Source: a virus. Taken from it: a stretch of 64,000 bases of DNA. Below the pieces are notes generated by a model, which did no database searches, had not been told where the DNA came from, and worked only from the letters and a program-made list of their open reading frames with translations. Both the position numbers and the translations under genes were made by a program. Positions 5,609 to 57,350 of the stretch are shown here, piece after piece. The stretch's first letter is position 1. Each line of letters begins with the position of its first letter. The stretch spans positions 45,966-109,965 of the IMG/VR virus record IMGVR_UViG_3300036985_006427, one strand, 5' to 3'.

Positions 5609-8600
5609 TTAACCTAATACAGAGTTAGTTTTCTTTAAATCACCGGATGTGTTTGTCTTAAACTGCGATATTTGTTTTCCTACTTCGGTCAACAATTCTT
5701 GCTTTATGTCTTCTTTCATTGTTTCTAAGAAAGAAGCTCCATTAAAGTTAACATTGATATTCGTTGTATCTAAAGCTACTTGGAATTTACTTCCTATAAG
5801 CTTGTCTACGGTCGCAGCGAAATTATTGAATATAGTTGTTAACTGTGGTATCGCTGCACTGAATGCGCTGCCTACACCATCTACCGCTCCTCCAACGTTA
5901 TAATATCGAGCTTTACCTCCACCGCTCATTGCTCCGGGAGCACTCGCTCCACCACCTTTGTTCATAGCTTGTAGTATCTGTAAATTATTGCCACGTTGAA
6001 CTGACGATCTGTTGACCACAAATTCTCCCGGAGTCAACATAGCCGGAACGGTATCTGTTCCACGCGGAACGAACATTCCTCTGTTCGCATAAACTGGACC
6101 TCCTCTGTAAAGACCCGGAGGAGCAGGTGCCGCAGCAGGTGCTTGAGCTGGAGCAGCAGCAGCGCCACCTAAAGCTTGGTTTAATTGTTTGCCAATGTCT
6201 CCAATTGTAAGTTCTTGAGCATAAACAATTGCTTGTTTAGTATTAACTTCTGCTCTTTCAAATTCGGCTGCTTGTTGACCAAGTTGACCAAGTGTTGTCG
6301 CTAATTCTCTACCTTCAGCTTTCTTAGCTTGCTCTTCGGTTGTTGTGCCAGATAGTACACCCGTTGATTGAACTCCGAAACGTTGCAGCGTTAAATCTTC
6401 TGCTCTTCTTTTTTTATCATCCGATAAGCCTTGTCCCTCAAGGGTTTTGAAACCAGCTCCCAACGCTGAACCACTAAACAAACTAGTCAAAGCAGAGCTT
6501 CCGCTCGCTAGTGCAGCACCAGCTCCAGCAGCCGCTTGTTTTTCTAAAAACCCTTCTATGTCACCGCTTATGAGTGATTCGAGAGAATCCTTTTCTGCTT
6601 GATTTTTTCTTTGAATTAATTGAAGTTCTTCTTTTCTAGCTTCAATTTCTTGTTTTGTTTGTGAGATTAAATCTTGTTGTAACGCTTTCAGTCTTTCTCT
6701 AGTGTCTTCTTCCGCTCCAGCGCCACCAGAAAAAGCTCTTTCTCCAGACACTGCGCCAGCTCTAGCTCTTTCTTCTAGTTGTAAGAATTGATTGCTAATA
6801 TCAGCGGATACGCTTTGAATATCACCAGCGTTGCCAGTTTGAAGACCACGCACACCAACAGCCTCAGCGCCAACATTGAAGCTTGCAACTCTAGCTTGTT
6901 GTTTTTCGCCTGCTGTTAAAGCTTTACCACCAAACTCTTCAAAGATCTTGCCAGCCTCTAGTTGTAATTCTATAGCCCTTCTTTGTGCTGCTACATATTC
7001 TTGTTCAGATGCTATACGTTGTTGAATTCCCTTGATCAGTAATTGCTCTGCCTCTGAGCGTTTTTGAAGAACACCAAGAACTTCTTTGTTGAATGCATCA
7101 CTAGTTTTTTGCAATGCTTCTCTTAATGGACCAAAATTTCCAGCTTGAATTTCAGCAAGATCTTCTCCGTTAAACTTAGAGCTTGCTTCGTCAAGACCAG
7201 CATTAATTCTTGTTGCCACTTCAGGATCTAATCCGGCGGTCAATTCTTCACTGAGTATCCTTGATATTTCTTGTGGAGTTGCTCCCGCCGGTCCTTTTTC
7301 CGTTAATTTCTTTTGTATGTTTGCAAAAGAATCTGAATCTTTATTTAGTCTAGAAAAGGCAGTGTTGAAACCTTTAGCTGCACCACTCGCGTTACCTATG
7401 GCAGCCTCACTAGCTCCAGCTTCACGCAAAGTACCTTCTAGTGTTGCAATGGCTCCATCTAATTCCTTTGCTGACAAAGTGCCAGCAGCGCTAGTCAATG
7501 CGGTCTGTAAGATATCTAATGAATCACCAAACTTATCTCCAACCTGATCTATAGTTAATAATTTCGATAATTTTTTGTTTGTAGCATCCAATGAATCAGA
7601 AAGTGTTCCAAGGCCAAAGTTAGTAGCTTTGATAAGAGCTAATTGTCTTATGGCTTGCTCTTTAGCGGCTTTCAAAGACTGTTTACCAGCTTCTTCTCTT
7701 TGTTTTTCAAATCCTCTAATTTTAATTTCTTGTTGTTCAAGATCTGAAAATACTCTGGCTCCCGGTCCTTGTGATTGCTGCACATTTGCGTCAATTCTAG
7801 CTTGCTCTGCTGGAGAAAATTGTGAAGTAGTAGCAGCTTTAAATGCTGAATTATCGGTAACAGTCCTTTCAGCTTCGTCCGCCGTTGCTCCTCTCATGAT
7901 CTGATCCGCAAGAACATTACCAAACATTGGTAATTGTTCCATAAATGCAGTAGTAGCTTTTTCTTGGTCTGGAATTTGTTCTTTCAAAGCTTCGGCTCTT
8001 TTTTTGTCGTTAGACTTATCCAATTGCCCCTGAAGCATACTGCCAACCAAAGCACCCAAAGGACCAGCAATAGCTAATCCAGCCATAGTTGAGGCTCCTT
8101 CCAGAGCCCAGAATGAATTATTAACATCTTCAATTCTTGAATTGCTCAAAGCTATGGATTGTGCAAGAACACCAAACTCATTGTTTAAATTACCAGTTAA
8201 ATTGCCTTTCGTAAATTCATCGGTTAAAGTGCTAGATCCAGACTCTACACGTTGCATAGCCATAGCGACATCGTTGGCGTTTTTAGAAGCTTCGTTTTCC
8301 TGTTTCTTTCTGGCGGCAGCTAATCTAGCTTCTTGTTTAACTGTATCTGTACTTGGACCTAATCCAAAGAATGCTAAAGTTTTTCTAAAGGCATTTAATG
8401 GTCCTTCTAACAGCCCAAACGCATCAGCTAATTTAAGACCAATCGCAACAATACCAATCGTAACACCAACTAGCACACCTAATGGTCCACTGACAGCAAT
8501 TAAAACACCAGCTAAAATTCCAAGAGCTATAGTTACTTTATTTACTATGTTAGAATTTGCAGACGCTACAGCCGTTTCTCCAGCTTTTGCGACATTGCCT

Positions 8601-11600
8601 TGCTCAATAGCCTTTTTAGCTTTTTCATGCACGCCTGTTAAAGAATCAACAGCTTTAGTTAAAGCAAAAGCAGCTATACCGCCAGCAGCAAACCCAGCAA
8701 TCAATGGACCAAGTACTGGACCAGAACGGGCAAGTACTTTACCTAGCTGTGGACCTAATTTAGTTAGTTGGGAGCCGAATTTACCTAATCGACCCGGAAA
8801 TTTTTCTAATATCTCTCCTGCTTTTTTAACTCCGCTTTCCAAACCACTGTTCTTGGCTCCAACTTGTAAGCCAGCACCTACTCTGGAAGATTTACCACGG
8901 AAGAATTGACCAATGTCTTTCAGTCCTGCTGCGTTTAATTTTAGACCAAAAGCTTGAGCAGCAGCAGCAGCACCAAGTAATCCTGCAAGAAGTGTTTGCA
9001 AACCACCCACTAACCCATCGGCAAATTTTGCAAGAGCGCTGCTATTTTCATCAATTTGTGGTTTTAAATAACCTAAGCCGCCAATAACAGCAGACACCCC
9101 AACAGATAACTTCAGAAGGTAATCATCATCTTTTTTTCGTGTTTTACCTGTTGGTGGACTAGTTGGAGATGTTCCTGTGCCAGTTCCAGCGTTTGGACTA
9201 GTCGGACTAACTGGAGGACAAGGACACACCGGAGGAACTACTTGAGGAGTTGCTGCGGGTAGACTAGTTGGATACCCTAGCCCTCCCGGTTTTGGATTGG
9301 TAGTTGCTGCGGGTGGAATAATGACTGGAGGTTTTACCGTAGTCATTGCCGGGTTTCGTCTTTGCACTGAACTTGGCTTCTTGCCTAAGGCTAATTTAGC
9401 TGCATTTTCTTGAACTCCAGCAGCCTTGATAGCTTGAGCGTTTGTCTGTAATTCTGCTGTGACCTTATCTCTAATTTCCTTTCCTCTTTTTAAAGATTCT
9501 TCTTCTCGCTGTAAAGCAGCGTTTGTATCTTTTAGATTTTTATCCATCACTGTGGATTCTTTCAGAAGATCATTCAGCTTTTTCGCATGCTCATCTTGAG
9601 CCTTCCTGTGGGTTCGTAAAGCCTTTTTATATTCGTTTAAATCTTTCTCGACCGATTCTTTGCTATCACCAAAATCCTTGAAACCATTTGGACCAGATTT
9701 TTTTCTAAGAGCAAGTTTACGTTCTTCAATTTTTGCTTTAATTTCTGCTTCATTTAATGGTTTCGAGGAACCTCTAACATCAACAGTAGTTTTAAGATCT
9801 TTTACTGAAGTTAGATCGGCAAATTCCTTTGTTTTTAAATCTATAGCGGATTCTTGTTCAGCCTTCTTTGCTTTTAAAGAGCCGACAGTAATCTCTTTTT
9901 TGGATATGCTTGATGAGATACCAACCTGTTGTCTTTGTAAATTACCCCTATCTTTTTGCAAATTTTGTCTAGTTACTTTTGCTGCATCTCTCATAGCTTC
10001 AAGCTCTGCTTTAGTAGGAGACACTGGAAGAACTGCCGGAGTAGTAGCCACTGGAGGTGCTGCAGTAACTGGCGGAGTAGTAGCCACTGGAAGAACTGCC
10101 GGAGTAGTAGCCACTGGAGGTGCTGCAGTAACTGGCGGAGTAGTAGCCACTGGAGGAACTGCCGGAGTAGTATCCACTGGAGGTGCTGCAGTAACTGGCG
10201 GAGTAGTAGCCACTGGAGGTGCTGGTACAGCAGCTTCTGGTGCAGGAGGTTCTGGCTGTTTAGGAGTTGGAGTTCCTAAAAATTCAGCAGCTTTCTTTTC
10301 TTTTACGTTAGCCTCTTGTGTGAGTTTAGCGTTTTTCTCTAAGTTAGACTGAAGCTTATCTCTAATTCTAATCGAACTATTTAAACTATCCTGTTCTCGC
10401 TTTAAAGAATCTGCTGTCTTTTTTAACGAGTCTTTGAGATCTGTTTCTTGTTCTTCAAGCTTCTTGGTTTGTAAATGAGCAGAAGCCATATCTTTAGCCA
10501 AAGATTGAAGATTACCTTTTAATAGTTCTAAATCCTTTGTTACAAAATCTCTACCTCCAAGGAGTTCAAGCTCACCAGAATCTCCGTTAAGAGCAGATTC
10601 ACGTTTCTTAATTTCACTTTTTATATTGACAGAGGTTTGTACGTCGGACTTTCTTTTCCTCTTATTCACATAAATGTCATCACTCACTGACGTCAGAGTA
10701 GATATTTGTTCATTCCTCTGAGCATCTAAAGCGTTTATATTACCTTGTTTTTCAGTTATGTCACCAGAAACATGAGCCTGACCGCTTTTTAACCCATCTC
10801 GTTTCTTTTCTAATTCTGCTCTAGTTTCGATTGCCGCTTTGTGAATAGCTTCAACGTCTGATGTTAAATCCTCTGCAGATAATCCAGCAAAACCTTCACC
10901 ACTCTTTTTTAACTCCTCGGCCATCGCAATCATAGCTAATTCAGCGTCACCAGTACTTGCTAATATAGATTGTGCAGCAGTATTAGAGCCTGCAAACAAA
11001 TTAGCAAAAACTTCTCTGTTTTGACCAGCATAGTTTTCAATAAAATTTAAACTAGCACCAGTCTTTTTCATAGACGTTACAAGAGCTTGAGTTATTTTAT
11101 CTGTTATTTGCTTTTGAAAAGTACCTTCTTTTTCGCTAGCATAACCAGAACCTCCTCCACCAATCTTGTCTCCAGCAGCAACATCCACTAAATGACCAAC
11201 CTCATGATCTATTGTTCCTGTTGTTGCTTTATCCTTGGCTGTCTTAACTTGAAATACACGCTCATTTTTGTCGTTTCCACCAGCTCTAAACTGACCGTAG
11301 GATGAACCACCATCAATATTGTCAACAATCCCACTTTTGTACTCTTCAGTACCTTGACCCTTTTCAATTCCGTCTAATATTGCTTTCTTTATATCTTCTG
11401 GTAGATGATTCGTTACTTTTTTGAATGCCTTACCGAAATCTTCGGCGGTCTTTACTTTATCTTTTCCACCAACCCGTGCTCGCACGATATCTTTAGCAGC
11501 TTCGTCAGTCGCTAGACCTCCAACTTCAAAACGATTCCAACCGCCTCCAACCGAACCGCCCTTGGCGAATTTAGCAACACCCTGCTTGTTCATTCGGTTA

Positions 11601-13987
11601 AGGTTTCCATAACCGATACGCTGTGCAGAGCTTTTGTTCACAACAAACTCACCGGGAGTCAGCAAAGCTGGAACCGTGTCTGTTCCAGCAGAACCTCCTT
11701 CAGCGAATTTAGCAACACGCGAACCAGATGTGGAACCTCCAGACGCTTTCTTTGAAGTATTTGTCGCTTTAGGTTGAATTTGTATATTTTTGAAAGTAGA
11801 TTCATATAAATCTGAAGCTAATTGATTTTTTATCTTTTTGTGAAATTCTGCTGGTGCAATATTACTGTTACTTGAGCCAGCAGACACTTTAGCGTCAATA
11901 TACTTGATATTTTTCAATGCCTTGAATAAATTCCCAGAGTTTATACCGCCGGTAAAGTCAAATGGTCTATTTTCTTCTTTAGCTTCAACAGCAATTGGCT
12001 GACCATTGAAAGCATCAACAACATCTTCAAATAAATTACCTTTTTGAGCTTGAGCTAACTTATATTGCGGAGAAAATCTAACTTCATCCCCTTTTAATTT
12101 AACGCCAGCGAAGTTTCCAAATTTATTTACTACAGATTTTATTAAAACTTTAGATTCTTCGTTTACGATATCATCGAAATTAATCTTTTGCTCATATCCA
12201 ATACCTTCTGCTAATGTAGAATATGTTTTTTGTTCAAATTGAAGTTGTTTTCGTGCTATATTTTTTATGTCGTCGGTGGACATATTTCCAGAACTGCCGT
12301 ATATGTCTTCGATTGATAATGATCTTAGTCCACCAAATCCAGTTCTTGTCTTTATAATATCATCAATAGATACTATAGCTTTTCCAACTTTTGGTTCGAG
12401 TTCTGGATTTATTATATCTGGAACTGCAATTCCGACAGAACTTTCTTGAGCTATTCCTCCAGTAGCATATCTATGCTCATTCATCGCCGCCAATTTATCA
12501 GCACCAATTTTATTGACGCTGCTCTTGCGGATTACGAATTCTCCGGGAGTGAGCATAGCCGGAACGGTGTCTTGATTTCCAACACCCGGAACAGAACCTC
12601 CTCGTGCAAAACCTAATATTCGTCCACCATCATTTTTACCCAACGTTCCCAATCCACGAATAGCAGCTCCAGCGCCAGAGGCGAAAGAACCTAGGCCCTT
12701 AGCGAATTTAAATGCAGCCATAGCAGCAATAAGAGGAACAAGCGGTTTAATAGCATCAGCGACTTTGATTAACGCACTAGCAACTTCTAAAGCTGTACGA
12801 GCAAAAAGCTGAAAAGATGTGCTTTCGGCAATACTACGAACTAAAGCTAAAAATTCTTCTTTGACTTTAGTGATTTGAACCGCTAAGGCTTGCTGTGCAG
12901 TAGCGGCATCCTTAGTCAATGAACCACTACCGGATTGCGCGACATTGAGAGCATTTTGAGCTACAGAAAACTGCTGTAGTAAAGGAATGACTTTACCAAT
13001 TTGTCTAAAACCACCGAGTTCTTCAGCTACTCTAATAAATTTAATATCACCCTCTTCTAATCCAGATAATGCTTGTGCTAATCGTTTAGAAGCTTCGAAT
13101 GGTCCAACAAATTTACCCTCCAAATCCAATAGTTCAACGCCATATTGACGTAAGAACTCAATTGTCTGGGGTCTTTGAATACGTGTAAAGATCGTTCTCA
13201 AGCCAGTGGCAATACTTTCAGCACTTTCACGAGTTGTGGCTCGAACCGATGTAAATAGAGCTAATAGTTCTTCTAAACTACCGCCAGAAGCTTTAAAAAC
13301 ACCACCAAATCTGCGAACAGCACTGATTAAGTCTTCAGCTTCAACGGCAAACGCTCCAGCAACAGCGTTAACAGAGCCAAGCTGTGCTTCTAAAGCACCA
13401 ACACCTTGTCCAAACTGAGCTAAAATAGCAACAGCACCCTCGGCAGTTTCTGTGATGCTATCGAAGTTTGGAGCAAGAGTTGTTTTAGCAAGAGCCTCAA
13501 GGGCCACTTTTAAGTCGTCTGCACCAATACCAGCTTGTGCTAATATAGTTGCTGTACTTAATAAGTCTTTACTAGAAGTGCCAAGGCCGACAGATAGTCT
13601 AGTTATTGTGTCTGTTAGGTCTCTTAATTCACCTATTGACTTACCTGTAACTTGAGAAACTTTAATGACTTCCCTTTGGAAAGCGATAGATTCATCTATT
13701 GCGCCAGCTAAAGAATTTGTAAACAAACTGACTGCACGACTTGCAATCGTAAAAGCTGCAAATCTTTTTATAGCCAAACCAAAAGATCTACCCATAGCAT
13801 CAGCGGCAGAAGAAGCTCTCTGTGTTGCCGCTGTTAATTGGTTTATCTGTTTGGTGGCAGATCCAGCGGCTTTGATAGACACTGGAATGTTAACGCCCTG
13901 AAGTTGTTGATTTATTTGCTGTACAACTTGAGAGGCGTTGTTTGGAGCTTGCAATTGAATTTGTGCAGTGAGTACAAATTTAGCCAT
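5609..13987 (-). CDS. Tail tape measure protein with embedded peptidase and nuclease-like domains
   Basis: 2,792 residues. Residues about 90-310 match the TP901-type tape measure core (SQVTGKSIGELRDLTDTI region and SGGSLEELLALF). It sets tail length and is ejected with the DNA. Residues 645-705 carry a PD-(D/E)XK-like pattern (LFEDVV ... FDF ... YIDAK). Residues 925-995 carry an HEVGH zinc-peptidase motif (H928, E929, H932) with E992 in NREVFANLF as possible third ligand. The motif DTVPAMLTPGEFVV occurs at about 473, 769 and 2645, bracketing these domains. A Pro/Ala/Thr-rich linker of 21-residue repeats follows, then coiled coil and several hydrophobic, membrane-spanning-like segments in residues about 1550-1850. 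If fully helical it would span about 420 nm; inserted domains make this an upper limit. Confidence 0.93.
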   Translation of the reverse strand: MAKFVLTAQIQLQAPNNASQVVQQINQQLQGVNIPVSIKAAGSATKQINQLTAATQRASSAADAMGRSFGLAIKRFAAFTIASRAVSLFTNSLAGAIDESIAFQREVIKVSQVTGKSIGELRDLTDTITRLSVGLGTSSKDLLSTATILAQAGIGADDLKVALEALAKTTLAPNFDSITETAEGAVAILAQFGQGVGALEAQLGSVNAVAGAFAVEAEDLISAVRRFGGVFKASGGSLEELLALFTSVRATTRESAESIATGLRTIFTRIQRPQTIEFLRQYGVELLDLEGKFVGPFEASKRLAQALSGLEEGDIKFIRVAEELGGFRQIGKVIPLLQQFSVAQNALNVAQSGSGSLTKDAATAQQALAVQITKVKEEFLALVRSIAESTSFQLFARTALEVASALIKVADAIKPLVPLIAAMAAFKFAKGLGSFASGAGAAIRGLGTLGKNDGGRILGFARGGSVPGVGNQDTVPAMLTPGEFVIRKSSVNKIGADKLAAMNEHRYATGGIAQESSVGIAVPDIINPELEPKVGKAIVSIDDIIKTRTGFGGLRSLSIEDIYGSSGNMSTDDIKNIARKQLQFEQKTYSTLAEGIGYEQKINFDDIVNEESKVLIKSVVNKFGNFAGVKLKGDEVRFSPQYKLAQAQKGNLFEDVVDAFNGQPIAVEAKEENRPFDFTGGINSGNLFKALKNIKYIDAKVSAGSSNSNIAPAEFHKKIKNQLASDLYESTFKNIQIQPKATNTSKKASGGSTSGSRVAKFAEGGSAGTDTVPALLTPGEFVVNKSSAQRIGYGNLNRMNKQGVAKFAKGGSVGGGWNRFEVGGLATDEAAKDIVRARVGGKDKVKTAEDFGKAFKKVTNHLPEDIKKAILDGIEKGQGTEEYKSGIVDNIDGGSSYGQFRAGGNDKNERVFQVKTAKDKATTGTIDHEVGHLVDVAAGDKIGGGGSGYASEKEGTFQKQITDKITQALVTSMKKTGASLNFIENYAGQNREVFANLFAGSNTAAQSILASTGDAELAMIAMAEELKKSGEGFAGLSAEDLTSDVEAIHKAAIETRAELEKKRDGLKSGQAHVSGDITEKQGNINALDAQRNEQISTLTSVSDDIYVNKRKRKSDVQTSVNIKSEIKKRESALNGDSGELELLGGRDFVTKDLELLKGNLQSLAKDMASAHLQTKKLEEQETDLKDSLKKTADSLKREQDSLNSSIRIRDKLQSNLEKNAKLTQEANVKEKKAAEFLGTPTPKQPEPPAPEAAVPAPPVATTPPVTAAPPVDTTPAVPPVATTPPVTAAPPVATTPAVLPVATTPPVTAAPPVATTPAVLPVSPTKAELEAMRDAAKVTRQNLQKDRGNLQRQQVGISSSISKKEITVGSLKAKKAEQESAIDLKTKEFADLTSVKDLKTTVDVRGSSKPLNEAEIKAKIEERKLALRKKSGPNGFKDFGDSKESVEKDLNEYKKALRTHRKAQDEHAKKLNDLLKESTVMDKNLKDTNAALQREEESLKRGKEIRDKVTAELQTNAQAIKAAGVQENAAKLALGKKPSSVQRRNPAMTTVKPPVIIPPAATTNPKPGGLGYPTSLPAATPQVVPPVCPCPPVSPTSPNAGTGTGTSPTSPPTGKTRKKDDDYLLKLSVGVSAVIGGLGYLKPQIDENSSALAKFADGLVGGLQTLLAGLLGAAAAAQAFGLKLNAAGLKDIGQFFRGKSSRVGAGLQVGAKNSGLESGVKKAGEILEKFPGRLGKFGSQLTKLGPQLGKVLARSGPVLGPLIAGFAAGGIAAFALTKAVDSLTGVHEKAKKAIEQGNVAKAGETAVASANSNIVNKVTIALGILAGVLIAVSGPLGVLVGVTIGIVAIGLKLADAFGLLEGPLNAFRKTLAFFGLGPSTDTVKQEARLAAARKKQENEASKNANDVAMAMQRVESGSSTLTDEFTKGNLTGNLNNEFGVLAQSIALSNSRIEDVNNSFWALEGASTMAGLAIAGPLGALVGSMLQGQLDKSNDKKRAEALKEQIPDQEKATTAFMEQLPMFGNVLADQIMRGATADEAERTVTDNSAFKAATTSQFSPAEQARIDANVQQSQGPGARVFSDLEQQEIKIRGFEKQREEAGKQSLKAAKEQAIRQLALIKATNFGLGTLSDSLDATNKKLSKLLTIDQVGDKFGDSLDILQTALTSAAGTLSAKELDGAIATLEGTLREAGASEAAIGNASGAAKGFNTAFSRLNKDSDSFANIQKKLTEKGPAGATPQEISRILSEELTAGLDPEVATRINAGLDEASSKFNGEDLAEIQAGNFGPLREALQKTSDAFNKEVLGVLQKRSEAEQLLIKGIQQRIASEQEYVAAQRRAIELQLEAGKIFEEFGGKALTAGEKQQARVASFNVGAEAVGVRGLQTGNAGDIQSVSADISNQFLQLEERARAGAVSGERAFSGGAGAEEDTRERLKALQQDLISQTKQEIEARKEELQLIQRKNQAEKDSLESLISGDIEGFLEKQAAAGAGAALASGSSALTSLFSGSALGAGFKTLEGQGLSDDKKRRAEDLTLQRFGVQSTGVLSGTTTEEQAKKAEGRELATTLGQLGQQAAEFERAEVNTKQAIVYAQELTIGDIGKQLNQALGGAAAAPAQAPAAAPAPPGLYRGGPVYANRGMFVPRGTDTVPAMLTPGEFVVNRSSVQRGNNLQILQAMNKGGGASAPGAMSGGGKARYYNVGGAVDGVGSAFSAAIPQLTTIFNNFAATVDKLIGSKFQVALDTTNINVNFNGASFLETMKEDIKQELLTEVGKQISQFKTNTSGDLKKTNSVLG
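10023..10211. repeat. 63-bp minisatellite inside the tape measure gene
   Basis: Three in-frame 63-bp units begin at 10023, 10086 and 10149, and a partial fourth follows at 10212. Each encodes 21 residues of Pro/Ala/Thr/Val-rich linker (PPVATTPPVTAAP type). Copies differ at few positions, so expansion looks recent. It sits between the peptidase-like part and a second coiled-coil part. Confidence 0.9.
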
Positions 13988-47864: not shown

Positions 47865-48111
47865 CTTTACACACAACCTTTATTATTCTGATATCGTTTT
47901 CGATGTCTTTTATAAAAAGAGCGATCTTGTCAGAAGGCTTTTGTTTGAGCAGAGTTTCAGAAAATTTACAGTAAGCCAAGTAACAAGCTTCGTCTGGATC
48001 TGCAGCTTCAATAAAGATATCTGGATACCCATGGTTAAATTCATTCAATCTGAATTGCACAAGTCTTTGTAAGACAGCAGTAAGATTAAAAGTTATTACA
48101 TAAATCTTCAT
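47848..48111 (-). CDS. Small protein, unknown
   Basis: 87 residues, mixed alpha/beta (MKIYVITFNLTAVLQRLVQFRL ... VVCKDEKKL). It overlaps the GDP-mannose dehydratase stop as ATGA, so it is translationally coupled. The EAADPDEACYLAYCKFSETLL helix suggests a compact domain. No family recognised. Confidence 0.55.
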   Translation of the reverse strand: MKIYVITFNLTAVLQRLVQFRLNEFNHGYPDIFIEAADPDEACYLAYCKFSETLLKQKPSDKIALFIKDIENDIRIIKVVCKDEKKL

Positions 48112-49208
48112 GGCAATGTGTCATGATCAATCATTAGTTTCACCAAGTCTGTAAATGTATGTTTTGGTTTCCAGCCAAGAACATTGAGTGCCTTGCTGGA
48201 TTCTCCACATAAATAGTCAACTTCTGCTGGTCTATAGAATTCTGGATCTTGAACAACCAATCCAGACCAATCTACGATACCAACATGGTTGAATGCTACG
48301 TCTAGGAACTCACGAATAGTGTGAGTCTCGCCGCTGCAGATGACGTAATCATCAGGATAATCCTGCTGAAGCATCGTCCACATCGCTTCCACGTAATCTC
48401 CTGCATACCCCCAATCTCTGAATGCTTCTAAGTTGCCCAGACGTAGTTTTGGAAACTTTTCAACAATTGAGCCATCCCCACTGAGTATAAGTGGAGAAAT
48501 TTTAAGAAAATAGTTTGGATCAGAGTCATAATCAATAGCAAGACTATCTACATGGTTTTTCCATTTCACGAATTCTCCAATCCACTTTGTGATTTTTCTG
48601 GTGACGAAATCTTCACCTCTTCTTGGACCCTCATGATTAAAAAGGATTCCAGAGCTAGCATGAAAAGAATAAGCTTCACGAAAAAGGCTAACCATATGAT
48701 GAGCGGCGCATTTCGCTATCGCGTATGGGCTTTGCGGCATGAATTTAGTTTCTTCGTCTTGATATTTTACTGTTAATCCAGACGTTGTGTCAGTATACTG
48801 ATCATAATTTTTACCAAACATCTCGCTTGAGCTAGCCTGATAAAACCTAGCTTTTGTTATTTGTAGATCAACCAATGCTTGTAAAATATTAAGGCACCCC
48901 TTGCCTGTAATATCCCAAGTCAAGGCTGGCTGTTTGAACGATACGGCAACATGACTTTGTGCCGCTAAATTATAGACTTCATCTACATCCGCGTGTTTTT
49001 TAAGGATATTGCTGACAGAATGTACATCAGTGATGTCTCCGTGCATCAGTTCGAAACTCTGATTGCAAAGCACATGTTTGATTCTTTGTGTGTTGTCGGT
49101 ACTTGAGCGTCGTGCAACACCAACAACGTGATAACCTTTTGAGAGTAGCAGGTCTGCCAAGTGACTACCATCTTGTCCTGTTATTCCAAATACGATAGCT
49201 TTTTTCAT
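48108..49208 (-). CDS. gmd: GDP-mannose 4,6-dehydratase
   Basis: 366 residues, the usual length. Rossmann motif G8-x-x-G11-x-x-G14 (GITGQDGSH), then RRSSTDNTQRI, SSSEMFG (catalytic Ser near 127), Y162-x-x-x-K166 in SPYAIAK, and FNHEGPRRGEDFVTRKI. It converts GDP-mannose to GDP-4-keto-6-deoxymannose, precursor of fucose, rhamnose and perosamine donors. It lies unusually between packaging genes. AAGGA precedes ATG. Confidence 0.92.
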   Translation of the reverse strand: MKKAIVFGITGQDGSHLADLLLSKGYHVVGVARRSSTDNTQRIKHVLCNQSFELMHGDITDVHSVSNILKKHADVDEVYNLAAQSHVAVSFKQPALTWDITGKGCLNILQALVDLQITKARFYQASSSEMFGKNYDQYTDTTSGLTVKYQDEETKFMPQSPYAIAKCAAHHMVSLFREAYSFHASSGILFNHEGPRRGEDFVTRKITKWIGEFVKWKNHVDSLAIDYDSDPNYFLKISPLILSGDGSIVEKFPKLRLGNLEAFRDWGYAGDYVEAMWTMLQQDYPDDYVICSGETHTIREFLDVAFNHVGIVDWSGLVVQDPEFYRPAEVDYLCGESSKALNVLGWKPKHTFTDLVKLMIDHDTLP

Positions 49209-51550: not shown

Positions 51551-51890
51551 GTCCTGCTGAAGCGAAGAGTCACATGCGAGTGAACAAGCACTCCGAGGTT
51601 GGGCAAAAAATAAATCTGGGCAATGTCTCACCATGACAACCCAGTACCTGTGAAGCAGCGAAAGCTGAAAAAGTACTAGATTTCCATCAGCAAACAAGCC
51701 CCAACTGCTCTTCAACACCGCCAAGTACCTGTCTTCACAGGTATAAATGGTCTTGTTGCGCCCTGAGCTTGGCATCGAGCTGTTTGTTTGTTTGCGTTGT
51801 GCTTCGATTGCAGGCTTGTGAGGCTGCTCTGAATCGAATTGCTGTTATCTACGTGGATTGGGTAAGACATTACAGAATATTTTCTGAATT
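51551..51890 (+). ncRNA. Candidate structured RNA
   Basis: There is no convincing gene between 51551 and 52128, but several stable hairpins occur: CTGGG-CAA-TGTC / GACA-A-CCCAG (about 51617-51647), CAGC-GAAA-GCTG with a GNRA tetraloop (about 51657), and TACCTGT-CTTC-ACAGGTA (about 51724-51743). TACCTGTGAAG near 51648 can also pair with CTTCACAGGTA near 51732, giving two exclusive folds. The promoter at 51425-51452 would transcribe it. From about 51890 to 52050 I see only AT-rich sequence. Confidence 0.35.
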
Positions 51891-52055
51891 GCTTGTGAAC
51901 CACCCAGCGTTTTTTCCAATAAAATTAACACAAAATTAATGAAGATAAAACACCCACCCCATGCTTTGTGTAGATTGTTAAGATTGTGAAGTCAGCGGTT
52001 TTCATCCCGATAAAAAATACTTTCAGAATATTATTCAAAAACGAACGCCACAGTA

Positions 52056-52084
52056 TTGCAACAATTCGAATGCGTCGATATAAT
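52056..52084 (+). promoter_or_regulatory. Promoter for 52129 gene
   Basis: TTGCAA, 17 bases, TATAAT (-10 at 52079-52084). A leader of about 38 bases follows. Confidence 0.75.
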
Positions 52085-52128
52085 ACGTAGATACAGTGAC
52101 GAACAAAACATCTCAAGGAAAAGTTATC

Positions 52129-52305
52129 ATGGAAATCAACGGCTTCACATTCAGTTCACGTCTCATCGGCACTTCAGCTTGTTACCATATCGCCAAGCGT
52201 GGTGACACTGTGTTCACCTCAAAAGAAATGAGTTATTTGATTCGAAAAGTAAAAAGTTATGGAATTTCACAAATAACAGGTGAAAACTTCTTGAAAACAA
52301 AATGA
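52129..52305 (+). CDS. Duplicated small protein A (copy 1)
   Basis: 58 residues starting MEINGFTFSSRLIGTSACYH. It is a close paralogue of the gene at 53142 (nearly identical over the first 45 residues; the C-terminal ~10 differ). AAGGAAAAG lies before ATG. It is basic and probably a compact alpha/beta fold. No family known to me. Confidence 0.7.
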   Translation: MEINGFTFSSRLIGTSACYHIAKRGDTVFTSKEMSYLIRKVKSYGISQITGENFLKTK

Positions 52306-52319
52306 AATGACGATAAGAT
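52291..52319 (+). promoter_or_regulatory. Internal promoter in duplicated module
   Basis: TTGAAA, 17 bases, TAAGAT, overlapping the end of gene A. The second copy (53287-53315) keeps the layout as TTGCAA-N17-TAATAT, which supports it. Confidence 0.45.
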
Positions 52320-52360
52320 ACTGTCTCACAAGTGTTTCACTCCTGACGAAAGATACCACG

Positions 52361-52555
52361 ATGCGATACGATGACCGAGTTACCAGTGTTGAGCTTTCAG
52401 CCCAGTACGAAAATAAGCAGGCACTGTTCGCCCTGCTGAACGAGCAAGACGCTCAGGCCGACGAGTCATACGCTCAGGCCGATCAGTCACGCGAATCATA
52501 CCAGTGTGAATCAGAGTATGATGATCAGGAATGGTGTGATAAAAACAATTACTAG
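52361..52555 (+). CDS. Small acidic protein B (copy 1)
   Basis: 64 residues from MRYDDRVTSVELSAQYENKQ. ATG at 52361 is preferred over 52307 because this is where similarity to the second copy begins as protein (MRYDDR-V/I-TSVE). The rest is unlike copy 2: Gln/Asp/Ser-rich with a DEQDAQADESYAQADQS tandem. Unknown function. Confidence 0.55.
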   Translation: MRYDDRVTSVELSAQYENKQALFALLNEQDAQADESYAQADQSRESYQCESEYDDQEWCDKNNY

Positions 52556-52616
52556 GCTTCACACAGTTCGGGGAATCTGATAAAATCCCCTTCTCACCTT
52601 CTTTTTGGATAAAAAA

Positions 52617-52754
52617 ATGAATCACTACGCTGCACTCAAAGTTGCCATTGCATCAATCGAGGCCATTCTGTCGAATCAGACATTGAGCAAAGATGTTCGA
52701 ATCGAATTTGAATCAAATAAGAAAAATTTAATTAATCTTTTGCGTTTTCTATAA
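52617..52754 (+). CDS. 45-residue protein
   Basis: MNHYAALKVAIASIEAILSN then helical, ending NLINLLRFL. ATG follows TTGGATAAAAAA. Upstream, GGGGA ... TCCCC around 52570-52590 may be a terminator of the previous unit. Unknown function. Confidence 0.5.
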   Translation: MNHYAALKVAIASIEAILSNQTLSKDVRIEFESNKKNLINLLRFL

Positions 52755-52767
52755 TAGGTGAATTAGG

Positions 52768-52962
52768 ATGAGCCAGATGAACGACCTAGCAATTCAGTTT
52801 TGCGAAGAACAAACCACTAAGGGTGCCGACTTTGACACCACTATGAATGATCTCATTTGTGGTGCTAATCCAACCGCTGACGCATTCACGGCATGGATAT
52901 TCCTACGCCAAAAAAATGATCGCAGGGAAACGGATTTGCTACGAGTTGCGAAAAAATCCTGA
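52768..52962 (+). CDS. Small protein, unknown
   Basis: 64 residues (MSQMNDLAIQFCEEQTTKG ... LRQKNDRRETDLLRVAKKS), helical. It starts 13 bases after the previous stop; AGGTGA lies upstream. It is followed 31 bases later by the first tract hairpin at 52993. No family recognised. Confidence 0.55.
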   Translation: MSQMNDLAIQFCEEQTTKGADFDTTMNDLICGANPTADAFTAWIFLRQKNDRRETDLLRVAKKS

Positions 52963-52992
52963 TTTGTACGTTTATCCCTTTGCGTAAAAAAT

Positions 52993-53013
52993 AAAAAAGG
53001 GCCCCCCCTTTTT
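52993..53013 (+). terminator. Tract hairpin 1 (A6-G3-C7-T5)
   Basis: Stem AAAAAGGG / CCCTTTTT with C loop, followed by ATTTT. Reversed loop orientation relative to most copies. Because both arms end in A and T tracts it could terminate on either strand. Member of an eight-copy family in this arm. Confidence 0.75.
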
Positions 53014-53075
53014 ATTTTGTTGTATTGCAATGCGTATTAAAATAATTATTTGTGTCCTTTTTATTGATTGTTGCG

Positions 53076-53104
53076 TTGACGATTGCCGATATATATGGTA
53101 TGAT
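53076..53104 (+). promoter_or_regulatory. Promoter for 53142 gene
   Basis: TTGACG, 17 bases, TATGAT (-10 at 53099-53104). Confidence 0.75.
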
Positions 53105-53141
53105 CCGCGTGTCAATTCAAAACACTCTAAGGACAACAGTC

Positions 53142-53306
53142 ATGGAAATCAACGGATTCACTTTCTCATCTCGTCTCATCGGAACCGCAGCCTGCTACCA
53201 TATCGCTAAACGTGGTGACGTGGTTTTCACTTCGAAAGAAATGAGTTATTTGATTCGCAAAGTTAAAAATTATGGAACATCTACTGTTGCAATCAAAACG
53301 AAATGA
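53142..53306 (+). CDS. Duplicated small protein A (copy 2)
   Basis: 54 residues, MEINGFTFSSRLIGTAACYH then close to copy 1 until VKNYG. AAGGACA precedes ATG. The shorter C-terminus results from divergence around the internal promoter. Confidence 0.7.
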   Translation: MEINGFTFSSRLIGTAACYHIAKRGDVVFTSKEMSYLIRKVKNYGTSTVAIKTK

Positions 53307-53315
53307 CGATAATAT
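53287..53315 (+). promoter_or_regulatory. Internal promoter in second copy
   Basis: TTGCAA, 17 bases, TAATAT, at the position equivalent to 52291-52319. Confidence 0.5.
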
Positions 53316-53355
53316 ACTGTCTGACAGATGTTTCACCCCGACGAAAGATACGACA

Positions 53356-53628
53356 ATGCGATACGATGACCGAATCACCAGCGTTGAAATGAACGACACG
53401 ATCAACCATACTGAATGTTGGAACGAAATCAACATGCAAGACATTGCCGAAAGCTGTGAATTCTGTAAGGTGGTTACACTCAATCCCTTTACTGGTGTGA
53501 AAGAAAGCCACATCATGGTGCCTTCAGACAAAGTACTCGAAGGTTTGAAAAATGGCGGTTTGAAGCGTTATTCAGAACGTTCACAGATTGTCAGTGTTGA
53601 CGCAGACGACATCAACCGCCTTTGGTAG
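53356..53628 (+). CDS. Protein B (copy 2)
   Basis: 90 residues from MRYDDRITSVEMND. ATG at 53356 is chosen by match with copy 1; the frame runs open to 53272 but without a ribosome site. Only the first ~10 residues resemble copy 1. The rest (CEFCKVVTLNPFTGVKESHIMV ... RYSERSQIVSVDADDINRLW) looks like a small beta-rich domain with a CxxC pair. Unknown function. Confidence 0.6.
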   Translation: MRYDDRITSVEMNDTINHTECWNEINMQDIAESCEFCKVVTLNPFTGVKESHIMVPSDKVLEGLKNGGLKRYSERSQIVSVDADDINRLW

Positions 53629-53654
53629 TATTCATCATTTTATGGAAAAACACA

Positions 53655-53759
53655 ATGAAGACCATTGACAAGGTTTGCATAATTTATTATTATACCATTG
53701 GCCCTGTTGTGTTGTTGTGGTTGGCGTTTGTTGTTCACACAATCTTCTTTATGGAATAA
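53655..53759 (+). CDS. 34-residue membrane protein
   Basis: MKTIDKVCIIYYYTIGPVVL then LWLAFVVHTIFFME: one clear transmembrane segment of about 24 residues. ATGGAAAAACACA precedes ATG, nearly the same leader as the 54257 gene. It ends 6 bases before the next start. Confidence 0.5.
   Translation: MKTIDKVCIIYYYTIGPVVLLWLAFVVHTIFFME
53665..53693 (+). promoter_or_regulatory. Possible promoter inside the 34-codon gene
   Basis: TTGACA, 17 bases, TATTAT. It would drive the 53765 gene with a leader of about 65 bases. Confidence 0.5.
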
Positions 53760-53764
53760 TCGTC

Positions 53765-54181
53765 ATGGAAAATTTCAATTTTGAAAAAACAATCGGCGGA
53801 CGTTTGGTTGCCGAACTTCGCAGAGAAATGATGGAATGCATTGTTGTTCCAAACAGTATGCTTCCTGAAAAGTTTCACGATAAAAGTCGTGGCGGTCGCT
53901 CTTTGGCTAGACTTGAAGAATTGTGTGCAAAACGTGACGGAGAATATACCGCACACCAAAAGGCAAAAGCCGCAAAAGCACGAAACATTGAAAGACTAAC
54001 AAAACAGGCTGAAGCCCTTTCAGTGTACAGTAAGGGTGGAGATTTCATCGACCTTAAACACGGCTTTGATTATAGCGAATGTGAAATTGATGAACATGCA
54101 CTGTACAGAAACGAGTGTGTGATGGTAAACGGTATGGTCAATGGCGGTTTGATAGAAATTGACGATTTGTTGGAAGATTAG
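53765..54181 (+). CDS. Unknown 138-residue protein
   Basis: Starts MENFNFEKTIGGRLVAELRR. The frame is open further upstream (to 53675), but that part duplicates the small membrane gene in another frame. A Lys/Ala-rich helical middle (AHQKAKAAKARNIERLTKQAEAL) and acidic end (LIEIDDLLED). No family recognised. Confidence 0.6.
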   Translation: MENFNFEKTIGGRLVAELRREMMECIVVPNSMLPEKFHDKSRGGRSLARLEELCAKRDGEYTAHQKAKAAKARNIERLTKQAEALSVYSKGGDFIDLKHGFDYSECEIDEHALYRNECVMVNGMVNGGLIEIDDLLED

Positions 54182-54256
54182 GGTTTGTCTTTGCCTATTC
54201 AGGCGAATGGCCGCTGCCATCGCTAAGGTTCTCACTCTTTATTTTTGGAAAAACAA

Positions 54257-54337
54257 ATGATTTATACGTTATTGTGTGCATGGATTGCTATCGTTGATCT
54301 GATTGACTATCTGCGATACCCTGAGTATTTCACTTAA
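54257..54337 (+). CDS. 26-residue membrane peptide
   Basis: MIYTLLCAWIAIVDLIDYLR then YPEYFT. Hydrophobic first half fits one membrane segment. TTTTTGGAAAAACAA precedes ATG, the same leader type as the 53655 gene. Confidence 0.4.
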   Translation: MIYTLLCAWIAIVDLIDYLRYPEYFT

Positions 54338-54391
54338 AGAATGCGTTTCTCTGGGCTAGGGCTTGACGGTGTAAATGGGATTTGATACAAT
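54336..54391 (+). repeat. Promoter repeat, copy 1
   Basis: About 56 bases repeated at 54617-54671 with one single-base gap and few changes. Contains TTGACG, 17 bases, TACAAT. Confidence 0.85.
54363..54391 (+). promoter_or_regulatory. Promoter for 54437 gene
   Basis: TTGACG, 17 bases, TACAAT (-10 at 54386-54391). Confidence 0.75.
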
Positions 54392-54436
54392 CCACGCCTG
54401 CCGGTGGATAGTTAAACACAAACAATGGAGCGAAGC

Positions 54437-54640
54437 ATGTTCATTACCCTCACGATCAAGTCTCTGTCACCAACCAAGTCTGAGATCCATGTACGCACGA
54501 CCAGTATCATGAGCGTCTCACCCTGCTTGGGCAATGGCTCACTTCTCTCAGTACTGGGAATTGGTGATCTTGCCGTTACTGAGAAACCTCTACATATTCT
54601 GAATTGGATCTGTGATAAAGAATGCGTTTCTCGGGGCTAG
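54437..54640 (+). CDS. Unknown 67-residue protein
   Basis: Starts MFITLTIKSLSPTKSEIHVR. GGAG lies 6 bases upstream; ATG at 54425 is open but too close to any leader. The last seven codons (KECVSRG) lie inside the promoter repeat copy 2, so the repeat created the present C-terminus. Confidence 0.6.
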   Translation: MFITLTIKSLSPTKSEIHVRTTSIMSVSPCLGNGSLLSVLGIGDLAVTEKPLHILNWICDKECVSRG

Positions 54641-54671
54641 GGCTTGACGGTGTAATGGGATTTGATACAAT
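54617..54671 (+). repeat. Promoter repeat, copy 2
   Basis: Direct repeat of 54336-54391. One base is missing in the spacer, giving TTGACG-N16-TACAAT. Confidence 0.85.
54644..54671 (+). promoter_or_regulatory. Promoter for 54710 gene
   Basis: TTGACG, 16 bases, TACAAT (-10 at 54666-54671). The discriminator is GGGG, followed by an inverted GGGGCC/GGCCCC. Confidence 0.75.
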
Positions 54672-54709
54672 GGGGCCTTGCGGCCCCTAAACCCTAAAGG
54701 AAATATTCG

Positions 54710-54943
54710 ATGACGATCCAGAGACTAAGTGTAGACGGAGAAGCTGGAGAAGCCACATGGACAGAACCAAATAGGGATGGAGAGTATGTTTATTGGGAAG
54801 ATGTCTCCGATCTGATCATTAAAGTGTCTGGACTGATTTCGAGGATCGAATTGGCAAACGATCTGCATGCCGTATTCACGATCAAAGATTCGGAAGAATT
54901 CGCAAAAGTAAAAGCTGTAGTTTCTGAAACATTAAAGGCGTAA
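54710..54943 (+). CDS. Unknown acidic 77-residue protein
   Basis: MTIQRLSVDGEAGEATWTEP ... VVSETLKA. AAAGGAAAT precedes ATG. Acidic, alpha/beta (YWEDVSDLIIKVSGLISRIEL, then FTIKDSEEFAKVKAVVSE). No family recognised; co-transcribed with 54955. Confidence 0.65.
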   Translation: MTIQRLSVDGEAGEATWTEPNRDGEYVYWEDVSDLIIKVSGLISRIELANDLHAVFTIKDSEEFAKVKAVVSETLKA

Positions 54944-54954
54944 CGGAGAAAATC

Positions 54955-55245
54955 ATGCTAGTTCTTGAAATTGCTCAGAATTCAGTCGAAAGCAAAGTAA
55001 TCGCCGCCAGCATCAAAACGGACGGCGGCTGGACCTTCCTCGACCGTAAAACCAACAAAATGGTAGAATCCCCAAAAGTGACAAAATGCGTCCTTTTGTT
55101 TGACCGGATGCTTGACATGTGGCCGAATTGCTCGGTTGAAGTCGAAGGGCCGGGACAGCAGACGAGTCCCCCATGGGGGTACTGCTGGTACTCTGCTGAG
55201 TCGTGGCCGAATGTATACAAGGAGAACTGGGACACGAGCGACTAG
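54955..55245 (+). CDS. Unknown 96-residue protein
   Basis: MLVLEIAQNSVESKVIAASI ..., C-terminus Trp/Pro-rich (QQTSPPWGYCWYSAESWPNVY). CGGAGAAAATC precedes ATG, 11 bases after the previous stop. A G-rich stretch with partial GGCCTC symmetry follows the stop. No family recognised. Confidence 0.65.
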   Translation: MLVLEIAQNSVESKVIAASIKTDGGWTFLDRKTNKMVESPKVTKCVLLFDRMLDMWPNCSVEVEGPGQQTSPPWGYCWYSAESWPNVYKENWDTSD

Positions 55246-55310
55246 GCACTAAGGGGGGTGACAGGCCTCTGCCTTGCGGTTGCATCTTACAATTTTCAAC
55301 AACTCAAAAT

Positions 55311-55331
55311 AAAAAGGGGGGGCCCTTTTTT
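55311..55331 (+). terminator. Tract hairpin 2 (A5-G7-C3-T6)
   Basis: Stem AAAAAGGG / CCCTTTTT with G loop; same family as 52993-53013 but loop strand reversed. Confidence 0.75.
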
Positions 55332-55391
55332 AATGCCATTCCTTGCACACGAACGTAAATAAAAAAAACCTCAAAAATCTAGTAAAGACCA

Positions 55392-55419
55392 TTGACATGA
55401 AACGCCGATAAGATATAAT
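55392..55419 (+). promoter_or_regulatory. Promoter for 55449 gene
   Basis: TTGACA, 16 bases, TATAAT (-10 at 55414-55419). Confidence 0.8.
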
Positions 55420-55448
55420 AGACAAACGAGAAGTGAACGAAACACCAA

Positions 55449-55622
55449 ATGGAAATCAAGATGAAAACGTACCAAGTAACTTTCAATTGTTCTGACAAAG
55501 TTGTTGTTCTGTATGTTGATTCAATCACAGCAGTGACGGCGATCAAGTTGGCTCACCAGCGTTCAAATGAAACCGGGGTTCTTCAGAATATTGAAGAAAT
55601 CACTTGCAAACTTTTGAAATAG
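55449..55622 (+). CDS. 57-residue protein
   Basis: MEIKMKTYQVTFNCSDKVVV ... ITCKLLK. An in-frame ATG four codons on (55461) is an alternative start. Strand-helix pattern (KVVVLYVDSITAVTAIKLAHQRSNETG) resembles small host-takeover proteins in T4-like early regions, but no family can be named. Confidence 0.55.
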   Translation: MEIKMKTYQVTFNCSDKVVVLYVDSITAVTAIKLAHQRSNETGVLQNIEEITCKLLK

Positions 55623-55631
55623 TGGTATAAT
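55604..55631 (+). promoter_or_regulatory. Promoter for 55667 operon
   Basis: TTGCAA, 16 bases, TATAAT; it overlaps the stop of the preceding gene. Confidence 0.75.
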
Positions 55632-55666
55632 TCACCTGTCTCAACAAATTCTCTAAAAGGGTTTTT

Positions 55667-55894
55667 ATGGTAAATTCTTCTGATATTTTCGATCAACTGA
55701 CCGACGACACCGTAACGGCTTGGCTGTCTGACTCTTCAATGAGTAAAATTGTTTTTGGTCGATTGTCAACAATCTGGAAAAGTCCCAAGGGTATAACCCT
55801 CTATCTCACAAGTCGTCGAACTGTGAGTTGGAGAATGTCAAGTGTAATTGCCGACGAAGTTTTATCACAGTACAGAAGTCACAGCGACCTTTAA
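55667..55894 (+). CDS. Unknown 75-residue protein
   Basis: MVNSSDIFDQLTDDTVTAWL ... RSHSDL. AAAAGGGTTTTT precedes ATG, a leader also seen before 57123 and 63087. Mixed fold (IVFGRLSTIWKSPKGITLYLTSRRTVSW). First of three closely spaced genes (55667, 55910, 56068). No family recognised. Confidence 0.6.
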   Translation: MVNSSDIFDQLTDDTVTAWLSDSSMSKIVFGRLSTIWKSPKGITLYLTSRRTVSWRMSSVIADEVLSQYRSHSDL

Positions 55895-55909
55895 AGAAAG
55901 AATTTTTCG

Positions 55910-56071
55910 ATGCATAGTTTGAGTCAAGAGCAGCTTCTCATCATCGTTCGCGGCCTTTCTTTGTATATTATTGATCAAATCAAAGACGGTGACGTTGACA
56001 ACGCAGAAAAAACTGCTAAAATTATCTCTGAAGCGTCTCATTCTTTACATGTTTTTGAAGGGTTAAAATGA
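55910..56071 (+). CDS. 53-residue helical protein
   Basis: MHSLSQEQLLIIVRGLSLYI ... HVFEGLK. The stop overlaps the next start as ATGA (56068-56071), so the pair is coupled. Two predicted amphipathic helices; unknown function. Confidence 0.55.
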   Translation: MHSLSQEQLLIIVRGLSLYIIDQIKDGDVDNAEKTAKIISEASHSLHVFEGLK

Positions 56072-56337
56072 ACATTCGTACAGCGATCGATAAGATTCTC
56101 AGACATGGTTGTCGCTCAGATAGAAAACTGCCATTCTCGGCAGATGCAACATTCATAGCAAGAGCAAAAGCGGCATACAGGAGGAATCTGGAAAATCCGG
56201 GCGATTGTGCTGGTGATAAATTCCTGCTTTTGGGGCTTTCAATCGCAGAAGCCCACGTTGGAACTGGTCCGGGTTGGATTCCAGAAGTCCAGAGATACGG
56301 CGTAAATTATGCCGAAATTCTGGAAAATAAAGTATAA
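56068..56337 (+). CDS. Unknown 89-residue protein
   Basis: MNIRTAIDKILRHGCRSDRK ... NYAEILENKV, basic N-terminal half, helical (IARAKAAYRRNLENPGD). Coupled to the previous gene by ATGA and followed by tract hairpin 3. No family recognised. Confidence 0.6.
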   Translation: MNIRTAIDKILRHGCRSDRKLPFSADATFIARAKAAYRRNLENPGDCAGDKFLLLGLSIAEAHVGTGPGWIPEVQRYGVNYAEILENKV

Positions 56338-56378
56338 ACAAAAACCATTATTTTAAATCAAATGTGATATGGAGGAAC

Positions 56379-56399
56379 AAAAAAGGGGGGCCCTTTTTT
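56379..56399 (+). terminator. Tract hairpin 3 (A6-G6-C3-T6)
   Basis: Stem AAAAAAGGG / CCCTTTTTT with GGG loop, 41 bases after the stop of the 56068 gene. Confidence 0.8.
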
Positions 56400-56500
56400 A
56401 TTTCCATTTGTTGCAGGATCTTTTTTAAAAGATTGTTTCCCTTTTACTCAAGTCGGCCATTGATTTTGGTCGATAAATAGAGTACAAAGGGAGACTAGCA

Positions 56501-56704
56501 ATGAAGAGTTTTTTTGTTGTAGCGTTGTTTTGTTGTGGTTGTGTTGTGCCGAGCGGTTCACAGGTAAAGGTGAAAGCGACATGTTTCAACGTGCTGAGCC
56601 CATACCCTACGGTTGAAGTTGAGGTCACCATAACAAATCAAACCGTGAAAACTGAAAAGAAAAAATCATTTTCGCTCTTGACATTTGCCGACAAAGAGCT
56701 ATAA
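56501..56704 (+). CDS. Small exported protein, possible lipoprotein
   Basis: 67 residues with a signal-like start (MKSFFVVALFCCGCVVPSGS): one Lys, a hydrophobic core and clustered Cys. The lipobox is not canonical, so lipoprotein status is uncertain. The mature part is beta-rich (VEVEVTITNQTVKTEKKKSFSLL). AAAGGGAG precedes ATG. It could be a small envelope protein involved in exclusion or lysis; inference only. Confidence 0.55.
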   Translation: MKSFFVVALFCCGCVVPSGSQVKVKATCFNVLSPYPTVEVEVTITNQTVKTEKKKSFSLLTFADKEL

Positions 56705-56705
56705 T
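56678..56705 (+). promoter_or_regulatory. Promoter for 56766 operon
   Basis: TTGACA, 16 bases, TATAAT (-10 at 56700-56705). The -10 box overlaps the end of the preceding gene. Confidence 0.8.
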
Positions 56706-56765
56706 ACACATGTAACGTCAGACGTGATTTGGTCAATAACTTGTTTTTTTTTGGAAGAAGTACAC

Positions 56766-57326: not shown

Positions 57327-57350
57327 ACTGGCCAGTTCAATTTGAACGGA

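What the first reader, a model, noticed from the sequence alone, without database searches (positions are those of the whole stretch)
11000..12700. Tape measure carries a metallopeptidase and a nuclease-like domain bracketed by repeats
Residues 928-932 (HEVGH) with E992 look like a gluzincin site; residues 645-705 look like PD-(D/E)XK. Copies of DTVPAMLTPGEFVV at about 473, 769 and 2645 bracket these domains like linkers. Since the tape measure is ejected into the host, the domains could act as delivered effectors, cutting wall, envelope or host DNA.
Basis: partly seen in the sequence, partly recalled or inferred. Interest (0 to 1): 0.7.

Follow-up and report, generated by a model that had tools for sequence, protein, structure and literature searches.

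The report
Swappable enzyme modules in tape measure
A giant tail protein of an uncultured aquatic phage carries a likely metal-dependent protease and a possible nuclease as interchangeable cassettes between copies of a 45-residue linker, and near-identical phages carry different cassettes there, as if they swap cargo that enters the host with the phage DNA.

Summary
The 2792-aa tape measure protein (TMP; window 5609-13987, minus strand) has HEVGH at 928-932, E992, and E654...D677...D698-A-K700, with DTVPA..PGEFV motifs at 473, 770 and 2645. The motif is a 45-aa linker found in 56 of 60 non-redundant related TMPs. Linkers A and B bound a hypervariable slot (112-2742 aa, median 410) of shuffled modules: nuclease-like in 35 of 43, plus HAD-, GNAT- and ADP-ribosyltransferase-like ones. 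Six TMP pairs with 95-98% identical cores carry slots only 25-31% identical; DNA homology stops just after linker A and resumes just before linker B: recent cassette exchange. The zincin follows linker B; HEXXH and the downstream Glu are invariant at about 30% identity. Its best fold matches, anthrax lethal factor and Pro-Pro endopeptidases, are sub-significant. The nuclease call rests on motifs only: no profile or fold support, and the lysine is lost in about a fifth of relatives. Best explanation: the TMP delivers exchangeable effector domains, like polyvalent proteins and the TMP-fused RNA polymerase. Delivery, activity and targets are inferred; the host is unknown. New variant of a known kind.

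The parts
5609..13987 (-). Tape measure protein, 2792 aa
   Evidence: PF10145 PhageMin_Tail E=2.4e-22; PHROG tape measure families, best 3e-28
12623..13987 (-). Conserved N-terminal core, residues 1-455
   Evidence: 45-74% identity in 15 relatives, mean column identity 61%
12473..12610 (-). Linker A, residues 460-505 (DTVPAMLTPGEFV at 473)
   Evidence: motif HMM
11711..12472 (-). Slot 1, residues 506-759: the exchanged cassette
   Evidence: DNA identity to L005 falls from about 95% to background here and recovers at linker B
11744..12202 (-). PD-(D/E)XK-like module, residues 596-748; candidate residues E654, D677, D698, K700
   Evidence: motif conserved across about 40 module copies; family unified by hhalign; no fold support
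11579..11710 (-). Linker B, residues 760-803 (DTVPALLTPGEFV at 770)
   Evidence: motif HMM
10856..11542 (-). Zincin-like metallopeptidase module, residues 816-1044
   Evidence: alignment A4; AlphaFold pTM 0.72; Foldseek ranking
11192..11206 (-). HEVGH, residues 928-932
11012..11014 (-). E992, proposed third zinc ligand
   Evidence: invariant in A4
10013..10224 (-). Pro-rich linker with 63-bp tandem repeats, about residues 1255-1325
8408..9013 (-). Hydrophobic, possibly membrane-spanning region, residues 1659-1860
   Evidence: Kyte-Doolittle scan
5951..6091 (-). Linker C, residues 2633-2679 (DTVPAMLTPGEFV at 2645)
   Evidence: motif HMM

Best explanation
The TMP is a carrier of exchangeable enzymatic modules. 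A conserved N-terminal core and a long helical, partly hydrophobic C-terminal part do the usual tape-measure work. Between them lie slots delimited by a 45-aa linker. Phages of this group replace the slot contents by recombination at or near the linkers while keeping the reading frame. In this phage slot 1 holds a PD-(D/E)XK-like module and the position after linker B holds a gluzincin-like metallopeptidase. When the TMP leaves the tail with the DNA, the modules enter the host envelope or cytoplasm and act there as early effectors against host proteins, nucleic acids or defences. Shown: architecture, motif conservation, cassette replacement. Inferred: ejection, enzymatic activity, effector role.
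For: Slots are present in 43 non-redundant TMPs, with different module orders (PD-HADa, HADa-PD, PD-GNAT, HADb-PD-ART, L035a-PD). Six pairs with 95-98% core identity have slots 25-31% identical, with edges at the linkers in the pairs examined at DNA level. WIN and L007 share 66% of the slot but 50% of the core, a sign of module transfer. Module types recur in delivered proteins: ART passes its Pfam cut-off, 24.5 against 23.4 bits; HADb-HAD_2 42.8% and GNAT-Acetyltransf_1 24% in hhalign, off-target pairs at 1.1% or less once the discarded PDall rows are set aside. Zincin site invariant. WIN-L005 dN/dS is about 1.0 in the zincin against 0.16 in the core, Fisher p=1.8e-5, as expected of an effector, though relaxed constraint would also fit. 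Precedents: P23-45 TMP-fused virion RNA polymerase (PMC10770324); lambda TMP labelled by an inner-membrane protein during DNA entry (PMC13190303); ART, GNAT and zincin domains in polyvalent proteins thought to be injected (PMC5512222).
Against: No proteomic, structural or biochemical data. The nuclease-like module has no profile or fold support and some copies lack the lysine. Zincin dN/dS near 1 may mean decay. No host is known and no isolate in the phage collection carries the modules, so everything rests on metagenomic contigs. Whether folded modules can pass a tail tube is unknown.
Confidence: 0.6

Rival explanations
1. The zincin is a processing protease: it cuts the TMP, perhaps near linkers, during tail maturation or after ejection, releasing the other modules.
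For: Sits directly after linker B in several TMPs. Zincins in polyvalent proteins are proposed to process them (PMC5512222).
Against: Most TMPs with linkers and other modules lack the zincin. Nothing here shows that linkers are cut.
Confidence: 0.15
2. The modules help cross the cell envelope: the zincin degrades envelope proteins or wall peptides for DNA entry.
For: TMPs often carry wall-degrading domains (established knowledge; a P23-45 TMP metallopeptidase is noted in PMC10770324).
Against: No Pfam wall-hydrolase family was matched in this TMP; nuclease-, HAD-, GNAT- and ART-like companions have no evident role in the wall.
Confidence: 0.1
3. Slot diversity mainly serves escape from host defences that sense TMPs, or a change of inner-membrane partner; catalysis is secondary or lost.
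For: SNIPE recognises siphovirus TMPs and TMP changes allow escape (PMC13190303). Zincin dN/dS about 1. Lysine lost in part of the nuclease-like modules.
Against: HEXXH and the downstream Glu stay invariant at about 30% identity; named enzyme families recur, one above its Pfam cut-off.
Confidence: 0.1
4. The nuclease-like module is a selfish homing-type element that spreads among TMPs.
For: A nuclease-like module occurs at one site in most TMPs and is recently exchanged.
Against: Near-identical flanks hold different modules, whereas homing spreads one. HAD-, GNAT-, ART- and zincin-like cassettes use the same borders.
Confidence: 0.05
5. The swaps are metagenome assembly chimeras joined at the conserved linker.
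For: Linkers are shared repeats of about 135 bp, where assemblers can misjoin.
Against: The same arrangements occur in separately assembled records (L004, L005 and L006; L041 and L043), joins are in frame, and L007 carries the PDw module in the same slot.
Confidence: 0.03

Closest known systems
Polyvalent proteins of phages and conjugative elements (Iyer et al. 2017, PMC5512222)
   Same: One long polypeptide combining zincin, ART and GNAT domains, linked to virion genes and thought to be injected.
   Different: The carrier here is the tail tape measure. The word 'tape' does not occur in that paper's text. Domains sit between repeated linkers and are exchanged as cassettes.
TMP-fused virion RNA polymerase of Thermus phage P23-45 (PMC10770324)
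   Same: An enzyme built into a giant TMP, also said to contain a metallopeptidase domain.
   Different: One fixed N-terminal polymerase; no interchangeable cassettes reported in the passages read.
Polymorphic toxin systems (PMC3482391, seen as an abstract only)
   Same: Constant carrier, variable toxin-like domains diversified by recombination.
   Different: Modules are internal rather than C-terminal, and the carrier is a phage TMP. Immunity genes were not searched for.
Gluzincins of the anthrax lethal factor / Pro-Pro endopeptidase and MtfA (M90) kind
   Same: HEXXH with a downstream Glu; these were the top, weak fold and profile matches.
   Different: No significant match: Foldseek best E 0.42, M90 18.8 bits against a cut-off of 26.2.

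Membership tests
Tape measure protein | Tape measure domain similarity | tested here: met
   PF10145 80.2 bits, cut-off 33.2; PHROG TMP families
Gluzincin metallopeptidase | HEXXH motif conserved in relatives | tested here: met
   invariant in the 11 aligned sequences
Gluzincin metallopeptidase | Downstream glutamate as third zinc ligand | tested here: met
   E992 invariant; that it binds zinc is inferred
Gluzincin metallopeptidase | Zincin fold with active-site geometry | tested here: inconclusive
   pTM 0.72, mean pLDDT 66.6; lethal factor and PPEP rank top but no match at E<=0.001; no viral match
Peptidase_M90 (PF06167) | Pfam curated cut-off | tested here: not met
   best 18.8 bits against 26.2; no match for the window protein itself
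PD-(D/E)XK nuclease superfamily | E...D...(D/E)xK residues in order | tested here: met
   E654, D677, D698, K700; recurs in most module copies, lysine replaced by Thr in 8
PD-(D/E)XK nuclease superfamily | Profile similarity to known members | tested here: not met
   hhalign with Mrr_cat and PDDEXK_1 at 0.5% or less; other subfamilies not tested
PD-(D/E)XK nuclease superfamily | Core fold | tested here: inconclusive
   AlphaFold pLDDT 49, pTM 0.28: uninformative
Polyvalent proteins | Several effector-type domains in one virion-linked polypeptide | tested here: met
   two candidate modules here; HAD-, GNAT- and ART-like in relatives
Polyvalent proteins | Delivered into the host with the DNA | not testable with these tools
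   needs virion and infection experiments
Polymorphic toxin system | Variable domain at the C-terminus | tested here: not met
   modules are internal
Polymorphic toxin system | Adjacent immunity gene | not tested
   neighbourhoods not searched for immunity genes

The most novel reading that the evidence does not exclude
Tape measure proteins of a widespread group of aquatic phages form a polymorphic effector-delivery platform: a 45-aa linker defines exchange sites at which phages swap injected enzymes (nuclease, protease, phosphatase, acetyltransferase, ADP-ribosyltransferase) in an arms race with host defences or rival phages.
Probability: 0.45. Interest if true: 0.82.

Novelty: new variant of a known kind. 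Interest (0 to 1): 0.63.

Why it matters
A survey of phage protein mosaicism reported that tape measures show a mosaic signal by sequence but that no genuine recent case could be confirmed (PMC10684548). The swaps here, bounded at the DNA level, are such cases and suggest why they happen. If the modules are delivered, the tail tape would be a general route for injected phage enzymes, and each cassette a candidate host-takeover or counter-defence tool.

Tried and rejected
Single-sequence searches with each domain found few relatives; the N-terminal core found 58 loci. Both domain profiles against PDB sequences gave only chance matches. Pfam on the domains: nothing for the window's own zincin, only weak metallopeptidase matches for relatives. 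The nuclease model was too poor for a fold search, so none was run. A combined alignment of all PD subfamilies scored 99% against every family, negatives included, and was discarded as an artefact. The PDc-HADb match at 72.6% covers a shared leading stretch, because the HAD-like module is nested in the PD module in some TMPs. First DNA-edge profiles anchored on HMM envelopes slipped register and were redone on PGE. A host search in genome contigs gave eight MAGs of unrelated taxa, hence no host. A zincin search of 145 bacterial genomes of one phylum was empty and, without a positive control, shows nothing. EF-hand matches stayed below Pfam cut-offs.

Full report
What was claimed and whether it is there. 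The protein is 2792 aa at window 5609-13987, minus strand, in a 109,965-base virus record. HEVGH is at 928-932, E992 in REVFANLFA, and the motifs are at 473, 770 and 2645. It is a tape measure by PF10145 (E=2.4e-22) and PHROG families.

Relatives. A search with the N-terminal core found 58 loci in viral contigs. The core is conserved (45-74% identity to the window in 15 relatives). The motif, extended to about 45 aa, forms a profile that finds it in nearly all these proteins, first at about 450-630, then again downstream. After removing duplicates, 56 of 60 TMPs carry it, and 43 have a first linker at 400-700 and a second one. The first-slot length ranges from 112 to 2742 aa. Single copies also occur in tail-region proteins of cyanomyophages S-SM2 and Bellamy, so the linker is not confined to this group.

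The slot contents are modules. Iterated profiles find in slot 1 a nuclease-like module in 35 of 43, HADa in 8, L019e in 4, L035a in 3, GNAT-like in 3, HADb in 2 and ART in 1, in different orders. hhalign unites the nuclease-like subfamilies (PDw-PDc 94%, PDa-PDc 97%, PDa-PDr 99.9%), with unrelated modules below 6% apart from PDc-HADb, explained by a shared leading stretch. Against reference families each recognisable enzyme module scores best where its motifs predict: HADb-HAD_2 42.8%, GNAT-Acetyltransf_1 24%, ZINC-M90 8%, HADa-HAD_2 1.7%; the last two are weak in absolute terms. The ART module passes the ADPrib_exo_Tox cut-off and one TMP, L024, carries a J-domain above its cut-off.

Cassette exchange. 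The window TMP and L005 are 95% identical in the core. At DNA level they match at about 88-100% to residue 500, fall to background, then return to about 90% or more at linker B and through the zincin. Six pairs with 95-98% core identity have slots only 25-31% identical; for the pair L050/L052 (93% core) the slot is shared as well (95%). Anchored on PGE, identity drops within about 30 codons after linker A and returns about 15 codons before the PGE of linker B in the seven diverged pairs profiled. In four of these it is lost again soon after linker B, leaving the linker as an island. Conversely the window and L007 share 66% of the slot but only 50% of the core. Chimeric assembly is unlikely because the arrangements recur in separate assemblies and the joins are in frame, but long reads would settle it.

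The metallopeptidase. The eleven aligned sequences keep HEXXH and the downstream Glu. Of the ten copies listed, six (WIN, L005, L009, L065, L066, L068) begin 9-16 residues after a strong linker; three (L038, L056, L070) have only a weaker linker match a short way upstream; L075 is a fragment. AlphaFold with these relatives gave pTM 0.72, with HEXXH and E992 on two helices. Foldseek against the PDB ranks anthrax lethal factor and Pro-Pro endopeptidase at the top but without significance (best E 0.42). M90 appears as a weak Pfam match in one relative. The family is therefore a gluzincin candidate, not an assigned member of a named family. Its dN/dS between the window and L005 is about 1.0 (28.8 nonsynonymous, 8.2 synonymous changes) against 0.16 for the core, p=1.8e-5; this fits either diversifying or relaxed selection.

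The nuclease-like module. E654, D677, D698 and K700 have the order and spacing of PD-(D/E)XK enzymes, and most of some 40 related copies keep them. But the lysine is Thr in 8, the profile comparison with Mrr_cat and PDDEXK_1 found nothing, and the model was uninformative. It should be called a candidate.

Mechanism. Shown: a conserved tape measure with linker-bounded, recently exchanged modules, several resembling enzymes found in delivered effectors. Inferred: that they travel with the TMP into the host and act there. Precedents are the P23-45 TMP-fused RNA polymerase (PMC10770324), the lambda TMP close to the inner membrane during entry (PMC13190303) and polyvalent proteins (PMC5512222). Processing by the zincin is possible but cannot be general. 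Variation to escape TMP-sensing defence is a serious alternative.

Novelty. The nearest known kinds are polyvalent proteins and TMP-fused enzymes. The literature searches found no description of linker-bounded exchange of enzyme cassettes in tape measures; they cover open-licence papers only. A mosaicism survey could not confirm recent mosaicism in tape measures (PMC10684548). I file this as a new variant of a known kind.

Noticed in passing
L024:8534-13000, residues 1374-1418 of that stretch: A J-domain (PF00226, 34.6 bits, cut-off 27.8) inside a related tape measure.
   Followed up: no
L076 (S-SM2) 6663-8975; L078 (Bellamy) 6826-9237: Single linker copies in proteins downstream of the baseplate hub gene of T4-like cyanophages, possibly their tape measures.
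   Followed up: partly
window 9390-10870, residues about 1043-1530: Two coiled-coil stretches that look like an internal duplication (about 30% identity between 1043-1238 of the window and the 1326-1530 equivalent in L004), separated by Pro-rich tandem repeats.
   Followed up: no
L050:19793-21316; L051:11603-13621: EF-hand-like matches below Pfam cut-offs near the C-terminal part of two related tape measures.
   Followed up: no
L045, L048, L038, L063: The HADb module appears to be nested inside the nuclease-like module.
   Followed up: partly
window 51800-61200: About 9 kb with no ORF above 170 aa and two tRNA genes on the plus strand.
   Followed up: no
window 48108-49208: A GDP-mannose 4,6-dehydratase gene (PF16363, E=3e-109) beside the terminase and structural genes.
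   Followed up: no
L079-L086: Eight contigs binned in MAGs of unrelated taxa carry this tape measure core, probably binning contamination by phage DNA.
   Followed up: no
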